A stretch of 64,000 nt of DNA from Halobacteriales archaeon QS_4_62_28 (GTDB lineage: Archaea > Halobacteriota > Halobacteria > Halobacteriales > Haloarculaceae), in assembly GCA_003021685.1 (NCBI GenBank), contig PXRO01000005.1, positions 1 through 64,000 on the forward strand. Reading direction: 5' to 3'. The notes below the pieces were generated by a model that had not been told where the DNA came from, searched no databases, and saw only the letters and a list, made by a program, of their open reading frames with translations. Position 1 is the first letter of the stretch, and each line of letters opens with the position of its first letter. This document shows, piece by piece, positions 9,985-60,650 of this stretch. The position numbers and the translations under genes were made by a program.

Positions 9985-11823
9985 ATGAGTTCGGTGCCCG
10001 AACGTTCGGAGATCAACGAGCAGCACAAGTGGGACCTGGAATCGCTGTATGCGACCGACGAGGAGTGGGAGGCAGCCTTCAGCCGAGCCGAGGAACTCGT
10101 CGAGGATCTGGCGGCCTACGAGGGCCGTGCCACGGACGACGCCGGGACACTCCTGGAAACGCTAGAGAGCTACGAGGAGTTGATGCGGACGGTCGCCAAC
10201 GTCGCATCATACGCCCGGATGCGCAAGGACGAGGACACGACGCGGGACCAGTATCAGGCACTGACCGCACGGTCACAGTCGCTGTCGGCCGACGCCTCCA
10301 GCGCCTCGAGTTTCCTCGAACCGGCACTGCAGGCCCTCGCGTGGGACGACATCGAGGCGATGATCGAAGCGGAACCGGACCTGGCCGACTACGAGCACTA
10401 CTTCGACGACGTATTGCGAATGAAAGAACACACCCGCTCGCCGGAGGTCGAGAACCTGCTGGCGGAGTTGAGCGAGGTGACCGGCGCATCCGGCGAGGTG
10501 TACAACATGCTGGCCAATGCCGACATGGAGTTCCCGAGCGTCGAGACGCCCGACGGTGACCCTCAGCCGATCACACTCAACAACTTCACGACCCTTCAAA
10601 AGAAGCCGGATCGGGACTTCCGCCGGCGTGTTTACGAGACGTTCTACGACGAGTGGGAGACCGTCCGCAACGCCGTCGGTGCGGCCTACAAGAACAGCGT
10701 CAAGACCGACGTGAAGATGGCACGGGCACGCAACTACGACACCGCGCGCGAGGCGGCACTGGATGGCCCAAACATTCCCGTTTCGGTGTACGATACGCTC
10801 GTCGACACCGTGCGTGACAATCTCGACGCCCTGCATCGCCACGCCGACCTGAAACGCGAGGCCATCGGCGTCCGAGAGTCCGACGACTCTCGGGGCAGTC
10901 AGACTCCGTCTGACTCATCTGGAGAGTTGCAGATGTGGGACCTCTACGTCCCACTCGTCCAGGAGGAATCGCCCGAAATCGAGTACGAGCAAGCCTGCGA
11001 GTACGTCGTCGACGCCGTTGCCCCACTGGGCGAAAACTACCAGTCACGCGTCGACGAGGGCCTGGAATCACGCTGGGTGGATGTCTACGAGACCGCAAAC
11101 AAGCAATCGGGCGCGTACTCCGGTGGGACCTACGACTCCCAGCCGTTCATCCTGATGAACTACCAGGACGACGTGGAGTCGATGTACACGCTGGCCCACG
11201 AACTGGGCCACTCGCTGCACTCCGAGTACACCAGCGAGTCTCAGCCCTACGTTTACTCTGGCTACGAAATCTTCGTCGCGGAAGTGGCCTCGACGGTCAA
11301 CGAGACGCTGTTGACCCACTACCTGCTCGATACGGTCGAGGACGACCGACTGCGCCGTCACGTCCTCAACGAGTACCTCGAACGCTTCCGGTCGACGCTG
11401 TTCCGCCAGACGATGTTCGCCGAGTTCGAACACCGCGCCCACGAGATGAGCGAGGCCGGTGAGCCACTGACCCCCGACCGCCTCGACGACCTGTATCACG
11501 GCCTCAAGAGCGACTACTACGAACCCGCCGCCGTCGACGACCGCATCGCCCGAGAGTGGATGCGCATCCCCCACTTCTACCGGTCGTTCTACGTCTACCA
11601 GTACGCGACTGGCATCTCCGCTGCGGTTGCACTCGTCGACGGCATCTTGGAGGAGGGCGAACCCGCCGCGAACCGCTACGTCGAGTTCCTCCGGAGCGGT
11701 TCCCGGGAGTACCCGCTGGAACTGCTCCAGGGAGCGGGCGTCGACATGTCCACGCCGGCACCCGTCGAGTCGGCCATCGACACCTACAGCGAGTATCTCG
11801 ACGAGTTCGATCAGTTGACCTGA
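9985..11823 (+). CDS. pepF: Oligoendopeptidase F (M3B metallopeptidase)
   Basis: The 612-aa cytosolic zinc peptidase cleaves short peptides. It has an N-terminal helical PepF domain and the M3 active site TLAHELGHSLHSEY (HExxH) near residue 405, followed by the EVASTVNE glutamate ligand. The gene carries what looks like an extra Ser/Asp-rich segment at about residues 295-312 (coding bases about 10871-10935). At the DNA level this segment is two perfect hairpins and one weaker one, in frame (see findings). Otherwise the length is normal for the family. Confidence 0.93.
   Translation: MSSVPERSEINEQHKWDLESLYATDEEWEAAFSRAEELVEDLAAYEGRATDDAGTLLETLESYEELMRTVANVASYARMRKDEDTTRDQYQALTARSQSLSADASSASSFLEPALQALAWDDIEAMIEAEPDLADYEHYFDDVLRMKEHTRSPEVENLLAELSEVTGASGEVYNMLANADMEFPSVETPDGDPQPITLNNFTTLQKKPDRDFRRRVYETFYDEWETVRNAVGAAYKNSVKTDVKMARARNYDTAREAALDGPNIPVSVYDTLVDTVRDNLDALHRHADLKREAIGVRESDDSRGSQTPSDSSGELQMWDLYVPLVQEESPEIEYEQACEYVVDAVAPLGENYQSRVDEGLESRWVDVYETANKQSGAYSGGTYDSQPFILMNYQDDVESMYTLAHELGHSLHSEYTSESQPYVYSGYEIFVAEVASTVNETLLTHYLLDTVEDDRLRRHVLNEYLERFRSTLFRQTMFAEFEHRAHEMSEAGEPLTPDRLDDLYHGLKSDYYEPAAVDDRIAREWMRIPHFYRSFYVYQYATGISAAVALVDGILEEGEPAANRYVEFLRSGSREYPLELLQGAGVDMSTPAPVESAIDTYSEYLDEFDQLT
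10872..10935. repeat. In-frame hairpin cluster inside pepF
   Basis: Two perfect stem-loops stand close together inside the coding sequence. CCGAGAGTC/GACTCTCGG lies at 10872-10893 with loop CGAC. AGTCAGAC/GTCTGACT lies at 10897-10915 with loop TCC. A weaker CATCT/AGATG follows at 10916-10935. They encode the SDDSRGSQTPSDSSGE-type segment between KREAIGV and QMWDLYVPL, which are probably contiguous or nearly so in homologues. The centre GACTCCGTC also occurs in a hairpin of the 59-kb element. I infer insertion of a palindromic element that kept the frame. Confidence 0.6.
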
Positions 11824-24561: not shown

Positions 24562-24578
24562 GACACCGAAAGCCCTCG
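24562..24578. repeat. Solo copy of the CACCGAAAGCCCTCG repeat end
   Basis: GACACCGAAAGCCCTCG lies upstream of rnhB. It is identical to the left end of the structured element at 60380-60396 and overlaps the core of the 59-kb element end. No matching inverted end is found within the following 300 bases, so this is a solo or decayed copy. Confidence 0.6.
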
Positions 24579-42713: not shown

Positions 42714-43013
42714 TCAGGCGCTGACCTGCAACGCGTAGTGGTCCTTCGCACACCCAACGGGCGAAGAACAGGTCGGTGCCGTCCTCCGGTGTCGTGCGGT
42801 GGGATCCCGGTGGACTGAACGGGCGAGGCGGGGTCGGCGGTTCTGCGTGGGCACTATTCGAACGAGCAAAGTGAGTGAGGATATCCGGCACAGAATCGCC
42901 GAGCACGTCCGAGGGCGTTCAATTCATTCGCTGTCTCGCGGTCGCCGTGTCGAGAGGAGTCCACAGCAGACCACTCTCACGTGATCGAGCAGCGAGCACA
43001 CGCACGGAGCAAA
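42714..43013. other. Intergenic region without recognisable gene
   Basis: These 300 bases separate two convergent genes. Short frames exist (for example on the minus strand from 42906) but encode Arg/Pro-rich sequence typical of shadow frames in high-GC DNA. No strong hairpin or repeat from the families in this window was found. It might hold decayed coding sequence, since one plus-strand frame ends in SAWALFERAK before a stop near 42870, but I cannot name a source. Confidence 0.4.
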
Positions 43014-58950: not shown

Positions 58951-59281
58951 CAAAGCACCGAAAGCCCTCGCCTTACGCGGCGGCAGTTGCCGCCGCGGAG
59001 AAGGCGGTCGGTGAAGCCGACCGCCCGTTGCGGGAACCCGGACCCCGCAAGCCACGAGGGACTCCGTCCCTCGGCCCGTGCGAACGGCTCCGCCGCGAGC
59101 AGACACCTGTCGGAGCGTGGTTCGAAAGACCTCCGGTCTTTCGTCATCACGAAAGGCGCGAATGCGCCTTTCGGTCGACAGCGTGGGTCCCGGGATGCTC
59201 GTGAGCGGAGCGAACGAGCGCTCAAAGACGAGCGAAGCGAGTCTTTGGTGCCGCAACTGTACGAGGGCTTTCGGTGCTTTG
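58951..59281. repeat. 331-nt hairpin-array element with perfect 20-bp inverted ends
   Basis: CAAAGCACCGAAAGCCCTCG at 58951-58970 is exactly complementary to 59262-59281. Between the ends at least seven perfect stems follow one another: 58977-58996 (8 bp, loop AGTT), 59003-59025 (9 bp), 59028-59050 (7 bp), 59055-59073 (8 bp, loop TCC), 59123-59143 (9 bp, loop TCC), 59150-59173 (10 bp, loop GAAT) and 59223-59247 (7 bp). Short frames here are shadows. It may act as a structured RNA or a DNA element. No protein is supported. Confidence 0.8.
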
Positions 59282-60380: not shown

Positions 60381-60650
60381 ACACCGAAAGCCCTCGGTGC
60401 TCTCGCGACCGCTGAGCGACATATCCGCAATCGCTTCGCTCTTTCGGATAGTGGTCGCTCAGACGGTCACGTACACGCGAGAGCACCTCGCCCTTTCATC
60501 CACCAGGGAACGATTGGTTGGCCGATTAGCCGAATCCTGGCGGATGAAAGGGCGAGCGGGGTTCCGGGAACCCTGACGACGCAAGCACGCGAACGGGGTG
60601 AGCGCGCGCAGCGAGTCACGGGACCGGAACCCCGCGAGGGCTTTCGGTGT
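60381..60650. repeat. 270-nt four-way-junction-like structured element
   Basis: ACACCGAAAGCCCTCG at 60381-60396 pairs perfectly with 60635-60650. Three arms fill the interior with no unpaired base between them. Arm 1, 60397-60486, pairs GTGCTCTCGCG with CGCGAGAGCAC, plus CTGAGCGAC/GTCGCTCAG and TATCCG/CGGATA inside. Arm 2, 60487-60556, pairs CTCGCCCTTTCATCC with GGATGAAAGGGCGAG, plus CCAGG/CCTGG inside. Arm 3, 60557-60634, pairs CGGGGTTCCG with CGGAACCCCG. Bases around GGGAACCC-GAC-CGCAAGC resemble the 59-kb element. It lies between mptG and ilvD. Confidence 0.8.

What the first reader, a model, noticed from the sequence alone, without database searches (positions are those of the whole stretch)
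60381..60650. A 270-nt intergenic element that folds on paper into a perfect four-way junction
The 16-bp closing stem (60381-60396/60635-60650) is followed by three long arms (60397-60486, 60487-60556, 60557-60634) that abut one another with no unpaired base between them. Arm 1 contains three stacked stems, arm 2 a 15-bp stem and arm 3 a 10-bp stem. The probability of such contiguous pairing by chance is low. There is no credible protein. The element lies between mptG and ilvD. It could be a structured RNA, a regulatory leader or a DNA element shaped by replication or recombination. I know of no described haloarchaeal family that matches.
Basis: partly seen in the sequence, partly recalled or inferred. 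Interest (0 to 1): 0.8.

Follow-up and report, generated by a model that had tools for sequence, protein, structure and literature searches.

The report
Mobile hairpin-dimer repeat of haloarchaea
The perfect four-way fold is real, but it is one of many copies of a jumping DNA repeat made of two mirror-image hairpins; the hairpin is found in most salt-loving archaea, including a conserved spot on their conjugative plasmids, and looks undescribed.

Summary
It is not a unique structured RNA or an ilvD leader. It is the core of a dispersed mobile repeat in a Halomicrobium-like genome. The genome holds about 90 copies of the 15-nt end motif. Sister copies are 220-430 bp units with IS6-family terminal inverted repeats and 8-bp target duplications (23 of 47 perfect). 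The mptG-ilvD site is empty in four congeners. The core is an inverted dimer of a hairpin unit, GAAAGCCCTCG-[arm]-CTCGCCCTTTC, so a four-way junction with no unpaired base follows automatically. Arms covary strongly. Wobble pairs do not exceed A-C mismatches and both strands fold, so maintenance looks DNA-level. The unit occurs in 248 of 292 haloarchaeal genomes and 0 of 164 other genomes of the phylum. It has no Rfam match. In this copy the terminal repeats are unrecognisable although the core is intact. The unit also begins a ~560-nt conserved non-coding region on haloarchaeal plasmids. In three plasmids examined in detail this region lies after conjugation genes and just before an SSB-like gene, a position suggesting a transfer or leading-region element; that is unproven. 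Best call: an IS6-type MITE with an unusual structured core.

The parts
60381..60650 (.). Core of the repeat: inverted dimer of two hairpin units, drawn as a four-way junction
60381..60396 (+). Terminal motif S (ACACCGAAAGCCCTCG), 5' half of the closing stem
   Evidence: inverted repeat I7; same 15-mer at about 90 places in the genome, counting both strands and up to 2 mismatches
60635..60650 (-). Terminal motif S', 3' half of the closing stem
60386..60497 (+). Left half-unit S-[arm]-C, type II arm (..CATATCC..GGATAGTGGTC..)
60546..60645 (-). Right half-unit S-[arm]-C on the opposite strand, type I arm (..CTCGCTGCGC..GTGCTTGCGTCG..); top hit of model R1 (111.8 bits; it was among the model's training sequences)
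60487..60556 (.). Central arm, C motif and its inverted copy C' (CTCGCCCTTTCATCC[A/G]CCAGG) around a 28-nt loop
60293..60766 (.). mptG-ilvD intergenic region; about 375-380 nt longer than in four congeners (90-105 nt), so the insertion is the 270-nt core plus about 105 nt of decayed flank
58956..59276 (.). Second family member, other side of mptG; recognisable MITE flank A on its right side only
   Evidence: absent next to mptG in congeners

Best explanation
It is an old copy of a non-autonomous DNA transposon (MITE) with an unusual interior. Shown: sister copies in the same genome and genus end in about 17-bp inverted repeats like those of IS6-family elements, are flanked by 8-bp target duplications, and occupy sites that are empty in relatives. 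Shown: the interior is two inverted copies of one hairpin unit (S-arm-C). S pairs with S', C with C', and each arm folds on itself, so the junction-perfect four-way shape is the geometric result of inverted dimerisation. Shown: halves occur in many combinations, so arms are exchanged among copies. Inferred: an IS6-family transposase acting in trans moved the unit here; the ends of this copy have since decayed. Inferred: the hairpin unit is kept folded at the DNA level, because it stays paired in copies whose ends have decayed and lacks RNA-like wobble preference. It is probably recognised as a folded single strand or cruciform, since the same unit heads a conserved non-coding region of haloarchaeal conjugative plasmids.
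For: Multi-copy: 65 blast matches and 90 end-motif matches against 9 for the reversed control pattern. TSD: 47 elements, 23 with 8/8 and 34 with at least 6/8, against 0.5% for mismatched pairs. IS6 parents: 697-bp PF13610 elements with the same terminal repeats and perfect 8-bp TSDs in G004. Empty sites at the finding's own locus: G001-G004, G011 and G031. Insertion size about 375 nt matches sister units. Inverted-dimer anatomy and single-unit elements of 217-228 bp (L074, L235) with perfect TSDs. Arm covariation: 95.3% of cells paired against 66.7% shuffled, 18 of 19 pairs with double changes. C:C' pairing is not maintained as a pair: partner mismatches 41 against 33.5 for random partners. 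Units stay about 95% Watson-Crick paired where the terminal repeat is gone. Class-wide: 248 of 292 genomes, 0 of 164 outside the class.
Against: This copy has no recognisable IS6 terminal repeats or target duplication, so its own transposition is inferred from sisters, the empty site and insertion size. Empty sites were checked only at this locus, not for the sister copies. Most class-wide copies outside a few genera also lack clear IS6 ends, so another mode of spread is possible. A plain MITE does not explain why the interior is conserved across 66 genera.
Confidence: 0.8

Rival explanations
1. It is a structured RNA (small RNA or leader) selected for its RNA fold, spread by chance with a transposon.
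For: Very strong fold and strong covariation of arms with conserved internal-loop motifs.
Against: Absent from the mptG-ilvD intergenic region in four congeners. G-U 32 against A-C 44 of 2265 cells, cluster-level 20 against 37, while tRNAs of the same genus give 18 G-U of 362 pairs (ARAGORN may list only canonical pairs). Both strands fold equally. The two arms are on opposite strands. No Rfam match at any useful score.
Confidence: 0.1
2. It is a host-retained cruciform or hairpin DNA element (insulator, nucleoid or recombination site) that began as a transposon.
For: Core stays paired when ends decay. Orthologous site next to another gene carries copies with different arms in G000 (L019) and G003 (L061), suggesting retention with exchange.
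Against: No fixed orientation or position relative to neighbouring genes in the copies read by eye. Presence varies between congeners. Template switching within palindromes could keep arms paired without selection.
Confidence: 0.2
3. The hairpin unit is a cis site of conjugative plasmids (origin of transfer, single-strand promoter or priming site), and the chromosomal repeats are satellites carrying it. This is compatible with the best explanation rather than an alternative to it.
For: Usually one unit per plasmid, 62 places in 56 plasmids. In three plasmids examined in detail it follows VirB6/VirB4-HerA-primase genes and precedes an OB-fold SSB-like gene. It heads a region conserved over about 560 nt in 168 plasmids and 146 of 292 genomes. 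32 of 60 listed region plasmids are among the 60 listed VirB6 plasmids, expected about 9, p 3e-15. Chromosomal copies match only its first ~150 nt.
Against: No relaxase, nick site or transfer experiment. Some region plasmids lack a listed VirB6. Plasmid and chromosomal units are only distantly similar. The genes beside it vary. The overlap test uses only the top 60 rows of each list and is not corrected for plasmid relatedness.
Confidence: 0.25
4. Chance fold or assembly artefact.
For: Several small contigs of this draft genome break at such repeats.
Against: z -14.6; many independent copies in other, near-complete genomes with target duplications.
Confidence: 0.01

Closest known systems
IS6-family MITEs of ISfinder (MITEHarch3 of halophilic archaeon DL31, MITEBth2; PMC6807381, PMC7986276: two IS6 MITEs of 227 and 336 bp)
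   Same: IS6-type terminal repeats, no transposase, 8-bp target duplication, haloarchaeal host, similar size (our single and double units are 217-228 and about 220-430 bp).
   Different: The papers read describe no structured interior, dimer architecture or class-wide unit. DL31 plasmid phalar01 does carry the plasmid-type unit.
Haloquadratum SMR-A, PATE and MITE categories (PMC3119063)
   Same: Short transposase-free mobile repeats rich in palindromes; nested insertions into palindromes.
   Different: SMRs make no target duplication and their ends are unrelated to transposons; PATEs are IS605-derived and lack terminal repeats. Here there are IS6-type ends and 8-bp duplications.
Bacterial REP/BIME elements (from general knowledge)
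   Same: Inverted pairs of a hairpin unit with conserved bulges, dispersed between genes.
   Different: Unit is about 100 nt and sits in IS6-type ends; no RAYT partner was sought.
Frpo/ssi single-strand elements of F-like plasmid leading regions (from general knowledge)
   Same: Hairpin-rich non-coding region just before an SSB-like gene on conjugative plasmids; separate modules on the same strand.
   Different: Archaeal; no promoter or priming activity known; resemblance only, not tested.

Membership tests
IS6-family MITE | Terminal inverted repeats matching an IS6-family element | tested here: met
   Met for sister copies (GG..GTGTTCAGATAAG in MITEs and in 697-bp PF13610 elements); not recognisable in the window copy itself
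IS6-family MITE | 8-bp target-site duplication | tested here: met
   23 of 47 elements 8/8, 34 of 47 at least 6/8, null 0.5%; none found for the window copy
IS6-family MITE | No transposase, multi-copy, empty site in relatives | tested here: met
IS6-family MITE | Mobilised in trans by an IS6 transposase | not testable with these tools
   Only a degenerate IS6 remnant was found in the draft genome itself (G000:C1); intact-looking elements in G004
Haloquadratum SMR | No target duplication; ends unrelated to transposons | tested here: not met
   8-bp duplications and IS6-like ends
Haloquadratum PATE | No terminal repeats, IS605-type near-terminal palindromes | tested here: not met
   Terminal repeats present in sister copies; IS605 relation not tested
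Known structured RNA (Rfam 15) | Match at gathering score | tested here: not met
   none in the window; only chance-level miRNA matches
Frpo/oriT-like conjugation element | Acts on transferred single strand (nick, promoter or priming) | not testable with these tools
   Only position and conservation on conjugative plasmids
REP/BIME | Partner RAYT (TnpA-REP) tyrosine transposase | not tested
   -

The most novel reading that the evidence does not exclude
The hairpin unit is a single-strand-acting transfer or leading-region element of haloarchaeal conjugative plasmids, matching no known family tested here, and chromosomal IS6-type MITEs across the class are satellites that carry it, so that chromosomes are seeded with plasmid-recognised sites.
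Probability: 0.2. Interest if true: 0.88.

Novelty: new variant of a known kind. Interest (0 to 1): 0.62.

Why it matters
A covarying, junction-perfect fold would usually be filed as a new RNA. Here it is explained by inverted dimerisation of a mobile hairpin, a warning for covariation-based RNA discovery in palindrome-rich genomes. The hairpin unit occurs in 85% of sampled haloarchaeal genomes, is missing from Rfam, and marks a strongly conserved non-coding region of conjugative plasmids. That gives a concrete candidate for a cis-acting transfer or establishment site in archaea, which can be deleted and tested.

Tried and rejected
Rfam at gathering and relaxed thresholds: nothing credible. 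tRNA/tmRNA: none. ilvD leader: rejected by empty sites. In one search the loci with ilvD on the minus strand were read on the wrong side; one search repeated them correctly. Terminal-repeat remnants beside the window copy: not significant. Selection on C:C' pairing between halves: not supported. Wobble test for an RNA strand: no G-U excess; a mild A-C excess on the S-to-C strand (cluster-level p 0.03), inconclusive. A first tRNA control was misregistered and was redone with ARAGORN. RNAalifold of the 564-nt plasmid region gave no decisive strand preference (-82 against -97). Phages: no match. All ten paper searches used; no description of this repeat found, but only open-licence papers are held.

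Full report
OBSERVATION. It has 106 base pairs with 4 G-U, and the opposite strand folds equally well, -183.4. No protein or known RNA is there.

IT IS A REPEAT. The own genome (G000, a 2.64-Mb draft) gives 65 blast matches to the element. The end motif CGAGGGCTTTCGGTG occurs at 90 places with up to 2 mismatches, against 9 for the reversed control. The window holds a second full copy at 58956-59276 and degenerate remnants near 24564 and 42817-42920. The genus is Halomicrobium: relative G001 has the contig length of H. katesii DSM 19301.

IT IS MOBILE. Outside the core most copies in this genome carry conserved flanks (A or B) ending in TGAACA-type terminal repeats. Across loci from G000-G003 and some other genera, 47 such elements were paired: 23 have a perfect 8-bp target duplication and 34 match at 6 or more of 8 positions, against 0.5% for mismatched pairs. 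Full IS6-family elements of 697 bp with the same terminal repeats and perfect 8-bp duplications exist in congener G004. The size matches ISH14/ISH29-type elements listed in PMC6807381 (696-697 bp, TSD 8). At the finding's own locus, mptG and ilvD are adjacent with 90-105 nt between them in G001-G004, while the window has 474 nt, so about 375-380 nt were inserted; G011 and G031 are also empty. The 270-nt core explains only part; the remaining ~105 nt have no significant similarity to the known flanks. I infer an old element whose ends have decayed.

ANATOMY. Each half reads GAAAGCCCTCG - arm - CTCGCCCTTTC (S-arm-C) on its own strand, and the two halves are inverted. S pairs with S', C with C', and each arm pairs with itself, so a four-way junction without unpaired bases is automatic. 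Elements with a single half exist (L074, 217 bp, and L235, 228 bp, both with perfect duplications). Composites with a 190-400 nt spacer between halves occur in other genera. Two arm types share the plan: type I (CTCGCTGCGC..GTGCTTGCGTCG) and type II (CATATCC..GGATAGTGG). In the own genome these and other arms appear in many combinations and with further hairpins inserted. At one locus that looks orthologous by its flanking gene, G000 (L019) and G003 (L061) carry different arms, which points to exchange between copies.

CONSTRAINT. Type I arms covary strongly: in 125 distinct sequences 95.3% of cells pair against 66.7% shuffled, 18 of 19 pairs show double changes, covariation score 0.586 against 0.130 (the alignment was fitted to the model, so it leans towards it; the independent MAFFT alignment gives 16 of 19 pairs with double changes). 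Type II arms show 23 of 33. Between halves, C:C' is not kept as a pair: partner mismatches 41 against 33.5 for random partners. So the constraint is inside each half, and the four-way junction itself need not be selected. In copies with no recognisable terminal repeat, about 95% of arm pairs are still Watson-Crick. Wobble pairs are rare and do not exceed A-C mismatches (32 against 44; cluster-level 20 against 37), unlike tRNA stems of the same genus (18 G-U of 362). I read this as DNA-level maintenance, by selection or by template switching within palindromes; these are not separated here.

DISTRIBUTION. A covariance model of the type I half (R1) finds the unit in 248 of 292 sampled haloarchaeal genomes and 66 of 77 genera (at most 13 candidates per genome were scored and E-values are rough). 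In a phylum-wide sample it is in 30 of 33 haloarchaeal genomes and 0 of 164 others.

PLASMID HOME. A type I consensus hits 56 haloarchaeal plasmids at 62 places, so usually once per plasmid. Of 12 non-MITE plasmid copies examined, 10 are on plasmids typed MPF_T. In pJ7-1 (unit at 11266-11378) the order is: VirB6/TrbL-like protein, a protein with weak HerA similarity, primase, primase-associated protein, HTH-DUF7437 protein, the unit, then an OB-fold SSB-like gene. Annotated order is similar in phalar01 and a Halobaculum plasmid, the latter with an annotated VirB4. The unit is the start of a non-coding region conserved over about 560 nt, found in 168 plasmids (80 over most of its length) and 146 of 292 genomes, but not in G000-G003. 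Region plasmids and VirB6 plasmids overlap far beyond chance (32 of 60 listed, about 9 expected, background 410 plasmids with an Orc1-like gene). Chromosomal copies match only about the first 150 nt of this region. In one search, where parts of the region recur on one replicon, the parts I compared lie on the same strand. All this suggests a transfer or leading-region element, by position only; no function is shown.

VERDICT. An old copy of an IS6-type MITE whose interior is an inverted dimer of a class-wide haloarchaeal hairpin unit. Shown: repeat family, terminal repeats and duplications in sisters, empty site, dimer anatomy, covariation, distribution. Inferred: transposition of this copy by an IS6 transposase, DNA-level maintenance, and the link to conjugation. 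Whether MITEHarch3 is the same family could not be tested.

Noticed in passing
L325:11257-11815 (NC_018225.1, pJ7-1); also L312-L324, L330-L359: A non-coding region of about 560 nt is conserved at roughly 75-97% identity across haloarchaeal plasmids and half of sampled genomes, just before an SSB-like, TFIIB or other gene and downstream of conjugation genes. Rfam has no family for it.
   Followed up: partly
one search hits, e.g. G177:C3, G037:C2, G076:C2, G132:C57, G248:C67, G258:C5: The 5' part (about 1-301) and 3' part (about 150-541) of that plasmid region occur separately a few kb apart, on the same strand in each case compared, as expected of leading-region elements or of tandem duplication.
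   Followed up: partly
window 58956-59276: A second member of the family flanks mptG on its other side, with extra nested hairpins and only one recognisable MITE flank; no unit motif lies within 1.5 kb of mptG in eight relatives checked.
   Followed up: yes
window 24564-24578 and 42817-42920: Degenerate remnants of the same family.
   Followed up: no
L200 (G000:C14:10416-10486): A core-less MITE: flanks B and A joined directly with no hairpin core and no clear target duplication.
   Followed up: partly
G000 contigs C7, C24, C28, C30, C32, C33, C45, C46, C48: Many contigs of this draft genome end inside or beside these repeats; C30 has perfectly inverted flanks around one copy, a possible fold-back assembly artefact.
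   Followed up: no
L156 (G008), upstream of ilvD: Another genus has an independent, different member of the family upstream of ilvD.
   Followed up: no
L019 and L061: An apparently orthologous intergenic site in G000 and G003 carries copies with completely different arms, suggesting arm exchange or re-insertion.
   Followed up: partly
C motif position 16 in 43 dimers: One half usually has A and the other G, never A in both; the central arm has a polarity that is unexplained.
   Followed up: no
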